This document shows positions 31,767 through 41,860 of a stretch of 41,961 bases of DNA, in pieces (the stretch's first letter is position 1; each line of letters opens with the position of its first letter). This DNA comes from Acidobacteriota bacterium (GTDB lineage Bacteria > Acidobacteriota > JAAYUB01). The position numbers were made by a program, and so were the translations under genes. The notes under the pieces are model-generated. The model searched no databases, had not been told where the DNA came from, and saw only the letters and a program-made list of their open reading frames with translations. The DNA is taken from the NCBI GenBank assembly GCA_017996395.1, contig JAGOHA010000017.1:1-41961 (forward strand), given 5' to 3'.

Positions 31767-32108
31767 ATGACATCCAAAGCTCTCATCGCCGCTTCGGCCA
31801 AGCCCATCATCCTGTCGCTACTCCTGACAGGGGAGAGTTACGGTTACGAGATCCTGCAGCGGGTCCGCCAGGTGTCGGGCGGCCGGCTCGGCTGGTCCAG
31901 CGCCATGCTCTACCCGGTGCTCCATCGGCTGGAGAAGGACGGCCTCATCCGCTCCGAGTGGAAGCTCTCCGAGGAGGGGCGGATGCGCAAGTACTACACC
32001 CTGTCCGACGCCGGGCGTCTGGAGCTGGCGGCCGAAAAGGAGGACTGGACCGCCGTCACGGCCTCGCTGGCCCGGCTCTGGGGCCGGATCGAAGCGGCGG
32101 AGGAGTAG
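31767..32108 (+). CDS. PadR-family transcriptional regulator
   Basis: A 113-residue winged-helix regulator. The PadR signature is clear: AKPIILSLLLTGESYGYEILQRV (helices 1-2), SSAMLYPVLHRLEKDGLI (recognition helix), the wing EEGRMRKYYTLSDAGRLEL, then a short C-terminal dimer helix. Such regulators usually repress a neighbouring transporter gene and bind small hydrophobic compounds. GTGAGGA precedes the ATG. The permease gene follows after 9 bases, so the two form an operon, the usual arrangement for this permease family. Autoregulation through the ATATGTA repeats at the promoter is possible but unproven. Confidence 0.93.
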   Translation: MTSKALIAASAKPIILSLLLTGESYGYEILQRVRQVSGGRLGWSSAMLYPVLHRLEKDGLIRSEWKLSEEGRMRKYYTLSDAGRLELAAEKEDWTAVTASLARLWGRIEAAEE

Positions 32109-32117
32109 GGGGGCGCC

Positions 32118-34745
32118 ATGTTCGATCTGGAAGACTCCATCCGGCAGTGGAAGCGGGAGCTGGCGGCCAGCTCGGCGCTGGAGGACGGCTATGTCGCGGA
32201 GCTCGAGGCGGGACTGCGGGACGAAGTGGCCGCCCGCGTGCGTTCGGGCCAAGCGGAGGAGGCGGCGTTCCGCGAGGCGGTGGCGGGGATGGGGGACGTC
32301 GAGGCGGTGGGCGCCGAGTTTCACAAGGTGTACACCACCCGCCGCTCCGGGCGCCCGCCCTGGCAGGCGCCCCTCTGCCTGTCGCCGCTCGTGTGGAACA
32401 TGGTCAAGGTCGCCGTGCGGCAGATGCGCCGCTACAAGGGGTACGCCCTGATCCACGTGGCCGGGCTGACGGTGGGCATGCTCTGCTTCCTGCTCATCAC
32501 GGTCTGGGTGCGGGACGAGCTGAGCTTCGACGGCTTCCACGTCCACAAGGACCGGGTCTACCGAGTGCTGTACGCCGAGCGCGACGGCGGCCTGCACACC
32601 GCGGTGTCGTACGCGCTGCCGCCCGGGATGGCCGCGGAGATCCCCGAGGTGGAGGCGAGCGCCCGGGTGTGGCCCTGGACCGGCTCCCTGGTGATCCGCG
32701 GCGACATCCGCCACCAGGAAGACGCCATCCACCTGACCGATCCCGACTTTTTCCGGATGTTCAGCTTCGAGTTCGTCCGCGGAACTCCGGAGATGGCGCT
32801 TCCCGACCTGCACTCGGTGGTCCTGACCGAGTCCGCCGCGCGGCGGTACTTCGGGGACGACGAACCGCTCGGCCAGACCTTGCATGTCGCGGAGATCGAC
32901 GAGGACTTCCGGGTCACCGGCGTCATCCGGGACCTGCCGCCCAACTCCCACCTGCAGTTCGAATTGGTGGGCCGGGTGGAATGGCTGGGCGAGGACCGGC
33001 TGGCGCGGTGGGAGGAGTGGGTGGCGCCCGCCTACGTCATGCTCCGGCCGGGGGCTTCCGCCGAAGCGGTGGAGGCCAAGGCGGCATCTCTGTTCCGGAG
33101 GGAGCTGGGCGAGATGCAGCGGATGATCTCGCCGGTGCTGCAGCCGTTGCCCCAAGTCCACCTCCGCGAGGACGGGACGCCGGCGAACCTGAGCCGGGTG
33201 GTCATCTTCTCCGGCATCGCGCTGTTGATCCTGGTCGTCGCTTGCGTCAATTTCATGAACCTGAGCACCATGCGGGCCACGCTCCGGGCACGGGAGGTGG
33301 GCCTGCGCAAGGTGGTGGGAGCCTCCCGCCTGCTGGTGGCCGCCCAGTTCATCGCCGAGGCGATGGTGCTGGCGGTGCTGTCCATGGGGCTGGCGGTGCT
33401 CGGCGGCTATCTGCTCCTGCCGCTGGTGAACGAGGCGGCTGGCCTGTCGCTGCGACTATTCGGCGACGACGCGTGGGGAATGTTCGCCATCCTGGCGGCG
33501 GCGACGCTGGTCACCGGACTGGTCTCCGGCAGCTACCCGGCGTTCGTGCTGTCGGCCTTCCGCCCAGTTGACACCCTCCGGAGCCGCGCCGCCGGCGGCC
33601 GCGGCGGCGTGCTGTTCCGCAAGGTCCTCATCGTCTTCCAACTCACCGTTTCGGTGGGGTTGCTCCTGTGCACCCTCGTCGTGGCCCGGCAGCTACGGTA
33701 CATTCAGGACAAGGACCTGGGGCTGAACCGGCATCAGGTGGTGGTCCTGTTCAACAACCCGCGATTGAACCGGGATTTCGACGCGTTCAAGGCGCAGCTC
33801 GAGTCACGCGCCGGAATCGTGCGCGTCACCGCCGCCTCCCAGAATCCCACCGACGTGGGCACGGGGCTGGGCGTGTGGCCCGAGGGAGGGACGGACCGTG
33901 ACCAGATCGGATTCGGCTACTGCGACGTGGACTACGATTTCTTCGAGACCTTTCGGATGACTGTCGTGCGGGGCCGGGCGTTCTCGCGGGCTTTCCCCGC
34001 CGACGCCGCTGAGGGTTGCCTGATCAACGAGAAGGCGGCCGCCGCGCTGGGGTGGCCCGATCCGGTGGGCCGCCGCCTCCATTTCAACCATCCCGGCGTC
34101 GATCCGGTCCGCCAGCGGCTGCGCGTCATCGGCGTGGTGCGGGATTTCCACTCCCGGCCGCTACGCGAGGCGGTGCAGCCGTTTCTGTTCCGGATGTACC
34201 GCCCCTGGCACTCCCGGGTGTTCGTCCGGGTGAGGCCGGACCGCGTGCCGGAGGCGCTGGCCGCCATCGGGGAGGTGTTCGGCGCGTTCGCGCCCGAATA
34301 CCCGTTCCGCTATATCTTTTTGAGCGAGTTGTATCAGCGACAATACCGGGCCGATCACCAGTTGGGGTTGCTGTTCGACCTGTTCAGCCTGCTGGCGTGC
34401 TTCGTGGCCGGCCTGGGACTGTTCGGCTTGTCCGCGTTCACGGCGGAGCGGATGACCAAGGAGATCGGCGTCCGCAAGGCGTGCGGTGCGCCGACCCGGG
34501 ATATCGCCACCCTGATCCTGCGGAAGTATGCCGGCCTCGTCCTGGCGGCCAACCTGCTGGCCTGGCTGGCCGGCTACCTGCTGATGACGGCGTGGCTGGA
34601 CCAGTTCGCCTACCGGGTACCACTGGAACCCGGAGTGTTCTTGGCCGCCTCCGGTCTGATGGTGCTGGTGGTGGGGGTGTCGGTGGGCTACCGGACCTAC
34701 CGGGCGGCGACGGCCCGGCCGGTGGACGCGCTCCGTTACGAATGA
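32118..34745 (+). CDS. FtsX-type ABC permease with N-terminal prefix domain (orphan, acidobacterial type)
   Basis: An 875-residue inner membrane protein. Residues 1-80 are a helical permease prefix domain (LEDSIRQWKRELAASSALED, then AFREAVAGMGDVEAVGAEF). A first membrane span (YALIHVAGLTVGMLCFLLI, about 112-132) leads to a MacB-type periplasmic domain and an FtsX unit of three spans with REVGLRKVVGASR; a second periplasmic domain and FtsX unit with KEIGVRKACGAPTRD follow, ending ARPVDALRYE. Two FtsX units give about eight spans. The family works with a MacB-like ATPase in export or mechanotransmission, but no ATPase gene is adjacent, the 'orphan' state known for acidobacterial duplicated permeases. 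AGGGGGGCGCC precedes the ATG. Substrate unknown. Confidence 0.9.
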   Translation: MFDLEDSIRQWKRELAASSALEDGYVAELEAGLRDEVAARVRSGQAEEAAFREAVAGMGDVEAVGAEFHKVYTTRRSGRPPWQAPLCLSPLVWNMVKVAVRQMRRYKGYALIHVAGLTVGMLCFLLITVWVRDELSFDGFHVHKDRVYRVLYAERDGGLHTAVSYALPPGMAAEIPEVEASARVWPWTGSLVIRGDIRHQEDAIHLTDPDFFRMFSFEFVRGTPEMALPDLHSVVLTESAARRYFGDDEPLGQTLHVAEIDEDFRVTGVIRDLPPNSHLQFELVGRVEWLGEDRLARWEEWVAPAYVMLRPGASAEAVEAKAASLFRRELGEMQRMISPVLQPLPQVHLREDGTPANLSRVVIFSGIALLILVVACVNFMNLSTMRATLRAREVGLRKVVGASRLLVAAQFIAEAMVLAVLSMGLAVLGGYLLLPLVNEAAGLSLRLFGDDAWGMFAILAAATLVTGLVSGSYPAFVLSAFRPVDTLRSRAAGGRGGVLFRKVLIVFQLTVSVGLLLCTLVVARQLRYIQDKDLGLNRHQVVVLFNNPRLNRDFDAFKAQLESRAGIVRVTAASQNPTDVGTGLGVWPEGGTDRDQIGFGYCDVDYDFFETFRMTVVRGRAFSRAFPADAAEGCLINEKAAAALGWPDPVGRRLHFNHPGVDPVRQRLRVIGVVRDFHSRPLREAVQPFLFRMYRPWHSRVFVRVRPDRVPEALAAIGEVFGAFAPEYPFRYIFLSELYQRQYRADHQLGLLFDLFSLLACFVAGLGLFGLSAFTAERMTKEIGVRKACGAPTRDIATLILRKYAGLVLAANLLAWLAGYLLMTAWLDQFAYRVPLEPGVFLAASGLMVLVVGVSVGYRTYRAATARPVDALRYE

Positions 34746-34853: not shown

Positions 34854-35846
34854 ATGGGCGAAGACATTCTCATCCAGGCGGCGAGGTTTTCGCCGGACGG
34901 ACGGCGCATGCTCACCGGCAGCGTGGACGGCGTGCTGGCGGAGTGGGACGCGAATAGCGCCCGGCGCCGCCGCCTCCTGCTGGATCCAGCGGGGAATGAG
35001 GATCACCCGGCAGCACCGCACGCGGGCGCCTTTGGGGAAGGGGCCCCGCCTCCCGGAACGGACATACTGGCGGCCGTCCGCGGCGGCTCCATCACGGCGG
35101 TCGCCTGGTTTCCCGATGGCCGGCGCTATGCCGCGGCCGTCGCCAACGGCTGGGCCGCGGTCTGGGACGCCGGGTCCGGCCGGGCGCTCTGCGCCTGGGA
35201 GGCGGACGCCACGGCCGTCGTTGTGATCGAGGTTTCACCCGACGGCCGGTGGCTGGCCACCGGCAGCTGCGAAACCGGCACCACCACGCTGCGCGTCTGG
35301 CGGATCGGGGAATCGTGGGCGGCACCACCCGTCGAGGCGTTTTCGAGCGACCGCATGATCGGCGGCGTCTTTTCGCTGTCGTTCTCCCCCGATAGCCGCT
35401 CGCTGGCTTCGGGCGGCTGGGGGTTCTCGGGTTACAGCGCGCCCATGATCTACGACGTGAACACCGGTGAGCGGGTCAACACCCTGCCCTGGGATGCCAG
35501 CCGAGCCATCAGTTTTTCCCCGGACGGCCAACGGCTGGCCACGGGAGACGAGTTCGGCAAGGTCAGCGTCTGGGACCTCGAGCGGCGGGCCCGGCTGGTC
35601 GAAAAGGAGGCGCACGGCGGAATCGTCAGCCTCGTCCTGTTTTCGCCCGACGGGCGGTCGCTCCTGTCCGGCAGCTGCGACGGCGGCCTGAAGCTTTGGG
35701 ATGCCGCCAGTGGCGAACTCCGGATGGAACAGGCGTACGACGGCCTGGTCCTGGACGGCCGGTTCGAGGGGGACGGCCGCGGCGCGGCCGTCGTCACCGG
35801 CGTCCGGGGCGATGAGCGCCCGCGGATCCATCAGGTGAGGTTCTGA
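34854..35846 (+). CDS. Seven-bladed WD40 repeat protein
   Basis: A 330-residue protein made almost only of WD40 blades. Repeats centre on FSPDGRRMLTGSVDG, FPDGRRYAAAVANGWAAVWD, SPDGRWLATGSCETG, FSPDSRSLASGGWGF, FSPDGQRLATGDEFGKVSVWD, FSPDGRSLLSGSCDGGLKLWD and a last, degenerate FEGDGRGAAVV blade, enough for a closed seven-bladed propeller. There is no signal peptide, so it is probably a cytoplasmic binding scaffold or sensor. Blade 1 is followed by an acidic/proline insertion (residues 45-70). No catalytic domain is attached. The stop codon is 4 bases from that of the convergent TIR gene; in many bacteria WD40 sensors and TIR effectors are fused, which makes a functional pair conceivable. Confidence 0.9.
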   Translation: MGEDILIQAARFSPDGRRMLTGSVDGVLAEWDANSARRRRLLLDPAGNEDHPAAPHAGAFGEGAPPPGTDILAAVRGGSITAVAWFPDGRRYAAAVANGWAAVWDAGSGRALCAWEADATAVVVIEVSPDGRWLATGSCETGTTTLRVWRIGESWAAPPVEAFSSDRMIGGVFSLSFSPDSRSLASGGWGFSGYSAPMIYDVNTGERVNTLPWDASRAISFSPDGQRLATGDEFGKVSVWDLERRARLVEKEAHGGIVSLVLFSPDGRSLLSGSCDGGLKLWDAASGELRMEQAYDGLVLDGRFEGDGRGAAVVTGVRGDERPRIHQVRF

Positions 35847-35850
35847 CCCG

Positions 35851-36621
35851 TCAGGCCTCGTCGGGCGGGGTCGGGGGCGGACCATCCGATCCGTCACCGT
35901 AGCACCAGGGGATGAGTGCCCGGATCGCCGCGGGATCGGCGATGACCGGCTCCATCTCGAACATGCCGAAACCGCCGGCCGCCGCCACCTCCGGCGCCCG
36001 CGCCGGGTCGCCCAGGGCGACAATGGTTGCGCCGGTGCATTCGATGGGGAGGGCGGTGAACTGTTCGGCCGAGGCGCGATCCAGGTGGCAGACGCAATCC
36101 GGATCGGCGGCGTTCGGCAACCGCAAGTCCACCGCCGGCAGACGGTATTTACGGATCAAAGCGGTGATCTCGGGCGGCCATTGGGTGCGCCGGCCGCGCG
36201 GGGCGCCGCACGCCGTCAGCCGGTCGGCGATCGCCGGGACCGCCGGCCACGGATCGTCCGGCGGCAGCACCAGGGGATCCGCGGCCGCGAGCGTCCGGGC
36301 GGTCTCGTCCGCCTGGCGGCTCAGTTCGCCGGCGGTCAGCCGGTCCAGAACGGGCAGCAGCGGTTTCCCGGTTCCCCGGATCGCTTGAATGTCGCCGTGG
36401 AACCAATGCGTGGCCCGCTTTCCCCAGACGGCGGGCGTGACGACCGCCAGCACCGCCGCGCACTCCGCCAGCCGCCGCTCGTTCTGGCCCGCCAACGACG
36501 GACCGTGGCAGCCGTCGCGCCAGCGGTACCAGGTGTGGAACCCCTGGATATCCAGCCCGCGGGCCAGGGTCCGGGCCAGCGGCTCGTCGGCCGGGACGTA
36601 GGTGATGAAGACGAAGCTCAT
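35851..36621 (-). CDS. TIR domain fused to an MshEN-like (GspE N-terminal) domain
   Basis: A 256-residue soluble protein. Residues 1-95 are a TIR domain: FVFITYVPADEPLARTLARGL, GFHTWYRWRDG, NERRLAECAAVLAVVTPAVWG and HWFHGDIQAIRGTGKPLLPVL. The position of the catalytic Glu of NAD-cleaving TIR domains (four after the Trp, as in SARM1) is Asp77 here. Residues about 156-240 match the alpha/beta part of the GspE/MshE N-terminal domain: YRLPAVDL, then DRASAEQFTALPIECTGATIVALGDPA, and MEPVIADPAAIRALI. In MshE this domain helps bind cyclic di-GMP, but the RLGxxL helical half is absent. ATG 36621 is preferred because AAGGA lies 5 bases upstream; ATG 36627 has none. Convergent with the WD40 gene at 4 bases. 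Confidence 0.8.
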   Translation of the reverse strand: MSFVFITYVPADEPLARTLARGLDIQGFHTWYRWRDGCHGPSLAGQNERRLAECAAVLAVVTPAVWGKRATHWFHGDIQAIRGTGKPLLPVLDRLTAGELSRQADETARTLAAADPLVLPPDDPWPAVPAIADRLTACGAPRGRRTQWPPEITALIRKYRLPAVDLRLPNAADPDCVCHLDRASAEQFTALPIECTGATIVALGDPARAPEVAAAGGFGMFEMEPVIADPAAIRALIPWCYGDGSDGPPPTPPDEA

Positions 36622-36774
36622 GGGCATCCTTCGGCGAGGCTCGGGGCTGGAAGCTTGAGACTCGCTCCCGATCGATCCAGCAATCGCAGGTTTACAGGTT
36701 CACAGGTTCGAAGGTTCAGGCCCACAATCATCGGCGTACTCGTTCTCGCCATCGTCATCGTCATCGACTACCTG
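36622..36774. repeat. Short modular repeat remnant, copy F
   Basis: This gap carries GAGGCTCGGGGCTGG, GAGACTCGCTCCCGATCG, four tandem GGTTCACAGGTTCGAAGG-type units and ATCGTCATCGTCATCG. It shares the CTCG...TCCCG and ATCG modules with the other copies but lacks the GGGACCTGGG arms. Orientation is as in copy G. Confidence 0.6.
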
Positions 36775-37401
36775 CTACTCCTCGATCCGGAACACCGGCA
36801 GGCGCAATCCCCAGACGATGGCCAGCAGTCGGAGCAGCACCACCACGGCCAGTCCGATCAACGCGGCGGCGTCCCGGCCGACGCCCGCCGCCTGGAGCGC
36901 CACGTAGACCGTCGAGCCGGCGATGGCCGCGGTGGCGTAGATGTCGCGGCGCAGGATCAGCGGGATCTCGGCGCTCAGCACGTCGCGCACCATGCCGCCG
37001 GCCACTCCGGTCATGGTGCCCATGGCCACGGCGATGAGCGGCGCCACGTGGGCGGCTTCGGCGATGCGGGTGCCCGTGATCGTGAACAGGGCCAGTCCCA
37101 GGGCGTCGGCGATCGCCAGCGCCCGGCCGGGCGGCTGGCGGTGGCGGACGTAGAGGAGCGTGATCAGCGCGGCGATGGCGATCACCACCAGGTACACCGG
37201 GTCGGCGATCCAGAAAATGGGGTGGCGGTCCAGGAGGATGTCGCGCAGCGTCCCCCCGCCGATGGCGGTGACCACGGCGATCACCAGCACGCCGAGCAGG
37301 TCCAGCCCCTTGCGCCCGGCGGACAGGGCGCCGCTGGCGGCGAACACGGCCACGCCCACGAGATCGAGCACATGGAGCAGGGTTGCGGGTTGCTGGAACA
37401 T
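36775..37401 (-). CDS. TRIC-type trimeric intracellular cation channel family protein (UPF0126)
   Basis: A 208-residue inner membrane protein with seven hydrophobic segments in two related halves. Each half carries the signature: [42 protein letters not shown] region near 15-56, and [41 protein letters not shown] region near 100-140; the paired GGGTLRD and GGMVRD motifs are diagnostic. Prokaryotic TRIC proteins conduct monovalent cations. No Shine-Dalgarno site is seen; the -10-like TATTAT (minus strand, 37413-37418) puts transcription start about 5 bases from the ATG, so translation may be leaderless. It follows the LOG gene by 72 bases on the same strand. Confidence 0.92.
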
Positions 37402-37473
37402 CGGCTGAGATGATAATACAGGGAGGCGGCCGCCGTCCACCGGGGAACGCGGGCGCGGCGGCCGGCCGCGGCG

Positions 37474-38076
37474 TCAGCGGTCGCGCACGGCGAAGCGCCG
37501 CACGTCCTCGCTCCAGGGGGGCGCCGCGGCGATGGCGTCGGGCACCGCTTCGGGCTCGGCGACCACCTGCCACATGGACCGGTGGCGCTCGTCCATGAAG
37601 CGCTCGGCGATGGCGCTTTCCAGCAGCCGGACCAGCGGGTCGAAGAAGTTGCGCGTGTTCACCAGGATGATGGGGTTCAGGTACAGCCCGAGCCGCTTGA
37701 GGGTGACGGCCTCCAGCAGCTCCTCCAGGGTTCCGCAGCCGCCCGGCAGCGCCACGGCGGCGGCGCTCTCGGCCAGCATCAGGTGCTTCCGGACGCGCAT
37801 GTCCTCCACCAGGCGGAGCTCCGTGAGGCCGGGGTGCCCCCACTCCAGGTCGGCCATGAACCGCGGCAGCACGCCGGTGACGCGGCCGCCGTGGGCGAGC
37901 GCGCCGTCGGCCAGCGCGCCCATGGAGCCCATGCCGCCGCCGCCGTAGATGACGGGATAGCCGCAGTCGGCCAGCGCCACGCCGAGACGGAAGGCGGCGT
38001 CGCGGTAGGCGGCGTCGGCCGCCGGGCTCGAGGCGCAGTAGACGCAGACGGGCGCTCGGTTTTCCGTTTGAACCAT
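37474..38076 (-). CDS. LOG family protein (nucleoside 5'-monophosphate phosphoribohydrolase-like)
   Basis: A 200-residue cytoplasmic enzyme of the Lonely Guy / TIGR00730 family, related to lysine-decarboxylase-like Rossmann proteins. The nucleotide-binding YGGGGMGSMGALADGAL (44-60), the Arg-Lys pair in MRVRKHLM (96-97) and the hallmark PGGCGTLEE (111-119) are all present. Members split a ribose 5-phosphate from purine nucleotides; in plants this activates cytokinins, in bacteria the role is often unknown. Length is typical. No good Shine-Dalgarno site is visible, but a clear promoter lies at 38122-38150. Confidence 0.93.
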   Translation of the reverse strand: MVQTENRAPVCVYCASSPAADAAYRDAAFRLGVALADCGYPVIYGGGGMGSMGALADGALAHGGRVTGVLPRFMADLEWGHPGLTELRLVEDMRVRKHLMLAESAAAVALPGGCGTLEELLEAVTLKRLGLYLNPIILVNTRNFFDPLVRLLESAIAERFMDERHRSMWQVVAEPEAVPDAIAAAPPWSEDVRRFAVRDR

Positions 38077-41419: not shown

Positions 41420-41860
41420 AGTGAGGAGTAAGGAGTGCGGATCCGTGCTCGTAAATCGTAATCGTAATCGTGATCGTGATCGTAATCGTGATCGTAATCG
41501 TGATCGAGGCTCGAGCCTCGAGGCTCGTTCCCGATCATCGGACATCGGAATTCGGACCTGGGTCTTGGGTTCCGGGTCCCAGGTCTTGGGTTCTAAATCT
41601 TGGGTTCCAGGTCCAAGATCCCAGCTCCTTGTTCCCAGAGATCCGGTTCCAGTCTCCAGGTTTCAGTCCCCAGGTCCCAGATCCCAGATCCCATGATCAG
41701 CAAATACGGACTCGACTCCAAATAGCCAATAAAATATAAGCAATTCGCAATAACCATTAAATGGAAAATGACAAATGAACGATGATCGATGAAAAATGAT
41801 TGATCCCTTCGTGCCCTTCGTGACTTTGTGGTGGATCGGTCCGAATCCGGCAGGAAATCG
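41398..41860. repeat. Modular intergenic repeat, copy G (most complete)
   Basis: Module order on the plus strand: GTGAAGAGTGAGGAGTAAGG; CGTAATCGTGATCG units (about 41454-41505); CCTCGAGGCTCGTTCCCG (41516-41533); ATCATCGGACATCGG; GACCTGGGTCTTGGG units; complementary CCCAGGTCCCAGATCCC arms; an AT-rich block (41721-41763) also present inverted in copy B; and CCCTTCGTGACTTTGTGG near 41815. It is the reference for the other copies. No gene is credible. Confidence 0.8.

What the first reader, a model, noticed from the sequence alone, without database searches (positions are those of the whole stretch)
35851..36621. TIR domain fused to an MshEN-like domain
A TIR domain, often an NAD-cleaving effector in bacterial immunity, is joined to a domain like the GspE/MshE N-terminal module that in MshE binds cyclic di-GMP. 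I know no described family with this architecture. It suggests a TIR effector gated by a nucleotide second messenger. The usual catalytic Glu is Asp77, and the RLGxxL helical half of MshEN is missing, so the domain may bind another ligand or a protein.
Basis: partly seen in the sequence, partly recalled or inferred. Interest (0 to 1): 0.82.

Follow-up and report, generated by a model that had tools for sequence, protein, structure and literature searches.

The report
TIR protein with pilus-motor docking domain
A small Acidobacteriota protein joins an immune-type TIR enzyme domain to one half of the docking region of a pilus motor (PilB); the pairing appears undescribed, but the half that binds the messenger c-di-GMP is missing, so the domain more likely grips another protein than senses a nucleotide.

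Summary
The gene lies on the minus strand (35851-36621). It encodes a TIR domain (Pfam PF13676, E 2.5e-8) followed by a PF05157 domain. The window copy alone scores just under the PF05157 cut-off (21.8 against 23.1 bits). Two sister-species orthologues and a 34-36%-identical two-domain relative from another family of the phylum score 26.8-33.2 bits. The C-terminal domain folds as MshEN_C (Foldseek to MshE 5htl, probability 1.00) and is closest to PilB. Asp77 and Trp73 of the TIR active-site motif are invariant in all four members. dN/dS is 0.29-0.38.

That half is absent, and there is no room for it between the domains. MshEN_C (ND1) is the part through which GspE docks on GspL, and by homology PilB on PilM. 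The best reading is therefore a TIR recruited or gated through a protein contact, not by c-di-GMP. The partner and any NADase activity are untested.

The pair is rare: four genomes among about 1,370 searched, all Acidobacteriota; other phyla could not be searched. No literature or PADLOC/NCBIfam entry describes it. It is a new architecture built from known parts.

The parts
35851..36621 (-). TIR-MshEN_C gene, 256 aa, start at the ATG of 36621 (a mechanical ORF extends to the in-frame ATG at 36627)
   Evidence: ORF; start choice from SD spacing and the orthologue's start; purifying selection
36627..36631 (-). Shine-Dalgarno-like AAGGA, spaced appropriately for the start at 36621
   Evidence: sequence printed; the same in two sister species
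36214..36612 (-). TIR domain (residues 6-138 counted from the 36627 ATG)
   Evidence: Pfam TIR_2 6-96; related TIRs align to about residue 138; Foldseek to BtTir, SARM1 and AbTir
36391..36405 (-). WxxxD motif (W73-x3-D77 from the 36621 start), at the place of the WxxxE active-site motif of bacterial TIR NADases
   Evidence: invariant in all four members; Glu at this place in most other TIRs of the phylum; AbTir W204 and catalytic Glu
36175..36213 (-). 13-residue linker; no room for the 53-residue MshEN_N bundle
35890..36174 (-). MshEN_C / ND1 domain (PF05157), PilB type
   Evidence: Pfam; PDB profile search E 3.8e-10 to PilB; Foldseek to 5htl MshE, 8pdk PilF, 2d28 XpsE and 7lko PilB
34854..35846 (+). 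stand-alone WD40-repeat gene, convergent with the TIR-MshEN_C gene; the pair is conserved in the genus (context, link unproven)
36775..38076 (-). neighbouring YadS/glycine-transporter-type gene and TIGR00730 LOG-family gene (genus-level synteny only; context)

Best explanation
This is a two-domain protein in which a TIR domain is carried on the ND1 (MshEN_C) part of a PilB-type pilus/secretion motor. Most likely ND1 works as a protein-docking handle: it ties the TIR to a partner that recognises PilB/GspE-type N-domains (the stator protein PilM or GspL, a PilZ-type regulator, or another protein with a matching surface). Engagement or clustering there would then control the TIR. The TIR keeps the fold and the WxxxE site in the form WxxxD, so it may be a weakened or altered NAD-cleaving or cyclising enzyme, or a signalling scaffold. 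Shown: the two folds, the missing c-di-GMP-binding half, conservation across two families of the phylum, and selection. Inferred: docking as the function of ND1 here, the identity of the partner, and any enzymatic activity.
For: Both domains match by Pfam. The PDB profile search gives PilB (3jc8, 5zfr, 5tsg/6olj) at E 4e-10 to 5e-9 for 152-249 and BtTir 7uxr at E 1e-5 for 8-119. The AlphaFold2 model has pLDDT 88 and pTM 0.84; its N-terminal half matches TIR NADases (BtTir, SARM1, AbTir, TIR-APAZ). The C-terminal part, modelled alone, matches MshE 5htl (E 1.9e-5, TMq 0.70), PilF GSPII-B, XpsE and X. citri PilB-N. No 24-residue c-di-GMP motif occurs in any of the four proteins, while an Acidobacteriota PilB used as control shows two. 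Published work: ND1 of EpsE/GspE binds EpsL/GspL and some GspE lack ND0 altogether; PilZ binds the PilB N-domain largely through ND1. D77, W73 and the stretch TWYRWRDGC.G.SL.GQ.ERR.AE are invariant at 34-38% overall identity. dN/dS 0.29-0.38; within ND1 0.16-0.26.
Against: A surface helix invariant in PilB (N-V-F-A-x-D-D-I after the DP turn) is replaced in all four TIR proteins, so if that helix forms the PilM interface, docking on PilM in the PilB manner would fail; I did not determine which face binds PilM. No T4P, PilM or PilZ gene was recognised beside the gene. No binding or enzyme data exist. Only four members are known.
Confidence: 0.55

Rival explanations
1. TIR effector gated directly by c-di-GMP or another cyclic dinucleotide bound to the MshEN-like domain, analogous to TIR-STING or TIR-SAVED proteins.
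For: The domain belongs to the MshEN family; the genome has 11 GGDEF matches, so c-di-GMP is probably made; in PilF the C-subdomain contributes one ligand contact.
Against: The binding bundle MshEN_N is absent and there is no space for it; isolated MshEN_N binds c-di-GMP without MshEN_C. Only one contact from MshEN_C has been described, and it is dispensable in MshE.
Confidence: 0.06
2. EAD-like adaptor: ND1 is a shared adaptor that links this TIR effector to WD40-type sensor proteins that also end in ND1, as effector-associated domains do in Kaur et al. conflict systems.
For: The same genome encodes two tandem WD40-repeat proteins each ending in an MshEN_C domain without MshEN_N, and the TIR gene itself is convergent with a WD40 gene in all three species. 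In G258 the gene lies near a second TIR and a DUF4062-AAA-WD40 gene; DUF4062 is reported as an antiphage NADase in a 2026 preprint. Multi-copy, terminal placement and effector coupling are the EAD marks.
Against: The ND1 of the TIR protein is closer to PilB (29-36%) than to the WD40-linked ND1 (16-20%), whereas EADs of one genome tend to be most alike. The WD40-ND1 genes lie on another contig. MshEN, GspE and PilB are not mentioned in either EAD paper searched.
Confidence: 0.14
3. Integrated decoy or guard: the PilB-like ND1 is bait for phage proteins that attack the pilus motor (pili are phage receptors), and binding triggers the TIR.
For: The ND1 is of PilB type and diverged on the surface; phages do encode PilB inhibitors (Tip, Aqs1, Zip). 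Patchy distribution.
Against: The mapped Tip site is in N2D, not ND1. I know of no Acidobacteriota phage inhibitor of this kind. The gene shows purifying, not diversifying, selection within the genus.
Confidence: 0.1
4. The TIR is a catalytically dead scaffold and the protein is a purely structural regulator at the pilus or secretion platform (this concerns the TIR half and can hold together with docking by ND1).
For: Glu is replaced by Asp in all four members while the nearest TIR relatives keep Glu.
Against: Asp and the Trp four residues before it are invariant across 34-36% identity, and the replacement keeps the charge. The closest TIR relatives carry Q-x3-E there, so the Trp is an additional active-site feature, not a loss.
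Confidence: 0.35

Closest known systems
PilB / MshE / GspE assembly ATPases (ND1 = MshEN_C = PF05157)
   Same: C-terminal domain shares fold and 29-36% identity with PilB ND1
   Different: No ND0/MshEN_N, no N2D, no ATPase; the PilB-invariant NVFAxDDI helix is changed
Bacterial TIR NADases (BtTir 7uxr, AbTir, PdTir) and SARM1
   Same: TIR fold and WxxxE position
   Different: Catalytic Glu is Asp in the whole family; fused C-terminal ND1 in place of the other regulatory parts of those proteins
MshEN c-di-GMP receptors (MshE, PilF GSPII-B, and MshEN fusions to REC, HD-GYP, CheA, glycosyltransferase)
   Same: Use of an MshEN-family module as a fused regulatory domain
   Different: The part shared here is MshEN_C, not the c-di-GMP-binding MshEN_N
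TIR effectors gated by cyclic dinucleotides or oligonucleotides (TIR-STING, TIR-SAVED) and Thoeris ThsB
   Same: TIR plus a regulatory domain
   Different: No STING or SAVED domain and no PADLOC match; the regulatory domain is a protein-docking fold
Acidobacteriota TIRs fused to membrane, FGE-sulfatase-like or WD40 parts (G504, G618, G607, own C185)
   Same: Closest TIR relatives by sequence
   Different: Keep Glu (QxxxE); other C-terminal parts; no ND1

Membership tests
TIR domain family (Pfam TIR_2) | Profile match above curated cut-off | tested here: met
   34.9 bits against 28 in the window copy; 31.7 in the distant orthologue
TIR domain family (Pfam TIR_2) | TIR fold | tested here: met
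   AF2 model; Foldseek best hits are TIR domains, probability 1.00
TIR NADase | Catalytic Glu in the WxxxE position | tested here: not met
   Asp in all four members
TIR NADase | NAD cleavage | not testable with these tools
   needs a biochemical assay
MshEN family (PF05157) | Profile match above curated cut-off | tested here: met
   Window copy 21.8 bits alone and 23.1 with neighbours in the frame (cut-off 23.1); orthologues 26.8, 27.6 and 33.2
MshEN family (PF05157) | MshEN_C / ND1 fold | tested here: met
   Foldseek of the domain alone to 5htl, 8pdk, 2d28 and 7lko
MshEN c-di-GMP receptor | Two 24-residue RLGxx...LxxQ motifs forming MshEN_N | tested here: not met
   No relaxed motif in any member; no helical bundle between the domains
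MshEN c-di-GMP receptor | Micromolar or tighter c-di-GMP binding | not testable with these tools
   needs ITC or DSF
PilB/GspE assembly ATPase | N2D and Walker A/B ATPase domain | tested here: not met
   the protein ends after ND1
PADLOC-listed defence systems (Thoeris, TIR-CBASS etc.) | Match to a defence-protein model | tested here: not met
   no PADLOC match at E 0.01
Effector-associated domains (EAD) of Kaur et al. | Same small adaptor on an effector and on a sensor of the same genome, most similar to each other | tested here: inconclusive
   ND1 occurs on a TIR and on two WD40 proteins in the genome, but the copies are not each other's closest relatives

The most novel reading that the evidence does not exclude
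A TIR immune effector that is wired to the type IV pilus / type II secretion platform through a detached PilB docking domain (ND1), either as a monitor of the machine or as a decoy of its motor: a link between TIR signalling and pilus machines that, as far as I could search, has not been described.
Probability: 0.25. Interest if true: 0.85.

Novelty: new variant of a known kind. Interest (0 to 1): 0.52.

Why it matters
TIR effectors are defined by what switches them. A TIR carried by the docking part of a pilus motor would point to pili or secretion platforms, which are common phage receptors, as something bacterial TIR systems watch or act on. It also shows that the MshEN label alone does not mean a c-di-GMP receptor: the PF05157 model covers the half that does not hold the ligand-binding motifs, so annotation by this model over-predicts c-di-GMP control.

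Tried and rejected
c-di-GMP gating: rejected as the leading idea after locating the ligand-binding half outside the present domain. Artefactual fusion: rejected, four genomes and two families carry the same open frame. Decayed gene: rejected by dN/dS 0.29-0.38. Thoeris-like operon with the nearby LOG-family gene: not pursued as an explanation, since that gene matches ordinary TIGR00730 LOG proteins and the arrangement is not kept in G258. Mobile or viral origin: no relatives in 72,556 plasmids or in IMG/VR. WD40-linked ND1 as the source of the TIR-linked ND1: not supported by identities. My first own-genome search used the wrong strand and was repeated correctly.

Full report
What was checked. 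The finding's coordinates hold an open frame on the minus strand, 35851-36627, with a better start at 36621. The mechanical ORF begins two codons earlier, but the AAGGA sequence has proper spacing only to the ATG at 36621, and the distant orthologue begins at the same residue.

Domains. hmmscan gives TIR_2 at 6-96 (E 2.5e-8, above cut-off) and MshEN PF05157 at 161-246 (E 1.8e-4, 21.8 bits, just under the cut-off of 23.1) and nothing else. The second match would be doubtful alone. It is settled by relatives: two species of the same genus (86 and 95% identity) and a protein in another family of the phylum, G258, which aligns over the whole length at 34-36% identity. The G258 protein scores 31.7 bits for PF05157 on its own (E 1.5e-7) and 31.7 for TIR_2, and also hits TIGR02538 PilB at the ND1 positions. 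In six-frame searches all four score at or above the cut-off. A profile of the four finds PilB structures at E 4e-10 to 5e-9 for residues 152-249 and the BtTir TIR domain at E 1e-5 for 8-119.

Structure. AlphaFold2 with a 33-row alignment gives pLDDT 88 and pTM 0.84. Foldseek on the whole model returns almost only TIR domains among the 50 best (BtTir, SARM1, AbTir, BtpA, TIR-APAZ). The C-terminal 112 residues modelled alone (pLDDT 86) match MshE 5htl (E 1.9e-5, TMq 0.70, rmsd 2.0 A), PilF GSPII-B, XpsE and X. citri PilB-N in the PilZ complex, all with probability 1.00. The alignment included PilB rows, which helps the fold of this part but does not create the match, since sequence profiles found it independently.

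What is missing. [quoted passage not shown] MshEN_C gives at most one contact, and isolated MshEN_N still binds the ligand. In the four TIR proteins the segment between the TIR core and MshEN_C is the end of the TIR fold, as related TIRs with other tails show, plus about 13 linker residues. No relaxed c-di-GMP motif occurs, while an Acidobacteriota PilB control carries two; the window genome's own PilB also fails the strict pattern, with close variants. So this is an MshEN_C (ND1) fusion, not an MshEN c-di-GMP receptor.

What ND1 does elsewhere. ND1 of EpsE/GspE binds the cytoplasmic domain of EpsL/GspL, the PilM relatives; some GspE have ND1 without ND0; PilZ binds X. citri PilB largely on ND1. 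This is the basis for reading ND1 here as a docking handle. Against a simple copy of PilB docking, the PilB-invariant NVFAxDDI helix is replaced in all four proteins, while the core residues Y-x-x-P-A, G, A-x-x-DP and EPV-x-A are kept. Whether that helix is the PilM face was not determined.

The TIR. The four members share TWYRWRDGC.G.SL.GQ.ERR.AE and a WxxxD motif in place of WxxxE. Most other TIR_2 domains sampled from the phylum carry Glu there, and the nearest TIR relatives have QxxxE. AbTir W204, four residues before its catalytic Glu by my knowledge of that enzyme's numbering (E208), is needed for cyclisation. The replacement is thus conservative and old; whether it leaves an enzyme is open.

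Selection and spread. dN/dS within the genus is 0.29-0.38 for the gene, 0.38-0.43 for the TIR part and 0.16-0.26 for ND1 in the tested pairs; neighbours give 0.10-0.29. Full-length members were found in 3 genomes of one genus and 1 of 7 genomes in the family of G258, out of about 1,370 genome searches in the phylum (some genomes counted twice). The most permissive cut-offs were used only in the first searches, and empty samples without a positive control prove little. No plasmid or viral-contig relative was found.

Context. In the genus the gene is convergent with a WD40-repeat gene and near a YadS-type and a LOG-family gene; none of these is kept beside the G258 copy. There the same strand carries an amidohydrolase, a TIR protein with a C-terminal membrane segment and a DUF4062-AAA-WD40 protein; DUF4062 is described in a 2026 preprint as a TIR-like antiphage NADase. 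This is suggestive of conflict systems but not decisive. The window genome also holds two tandem WD40 proteins that each end in an ND1 without ND0, so ND1 has been detached from motors more than once in this genus; the copies are not specifically related to the TIR-linked one.

Verdict. The nucleotide-gating idea is unlikely. The best explanation is a TIR tied to a partner through a PilB-type ND1 (confidence 0.55 for docking rather than ligand sensing; about 0.25 that the partner is the pilus or secretion platform). I found no description of this architecture in the libraries and the open-access papers searched, which leaves subscription literature unsearched.

Noticed in passing
L128:2966-5782:- and L128:573-2966:- (window genome, contig C143); also L129 in a sister species: Two tandem WD40-repeat proteins, each ending in an MshEN_C (PF05157, about 53 bits) domain without the c-di-GMP-binding half; an unusual WD40-ND1 architecture.
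   Followed up: partly
L130:1856-4534:- (G258): An FHA - MshEN - FHA protein with a zinc-ribbon-like start and a C-terminal DUF3616-type region.
   Followed up: no
L043:2-9155:- (G258): On one strand near the TIR-MshEN_C orthologue: an amidohydrolase, a TIR protein with a membrane segment at its end, a 218-aa unknown and a DUF4062-AAA16-WD40 protein of at least 1612 aa.
   Followed up: partly
window 31767-34745: A PadR-type regulator gene (best NCBIfam match padR_acidobact, below cut-off) and an ADOP-like permease gene lie between the kinase-like gene and the WD40 gene; in both sister species the two flanking genes are adjacent, so the pair is a lineage-specific insertion or was lost there.
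   Followed up: partly
L048, L118-L121, L042: A set of Acidobacteriota TIR proteins with related TIR domains (QxxxE) followed by membrane, FGE-sulfatase-like or WD40 parts.
   Followed up: partly
window 36680-36770 and 41421-41700: Intergenic stretches with short imperfect repeats (such as caggttcacaggttc and gatcgtgatcgtgatc).
   Followed up: no
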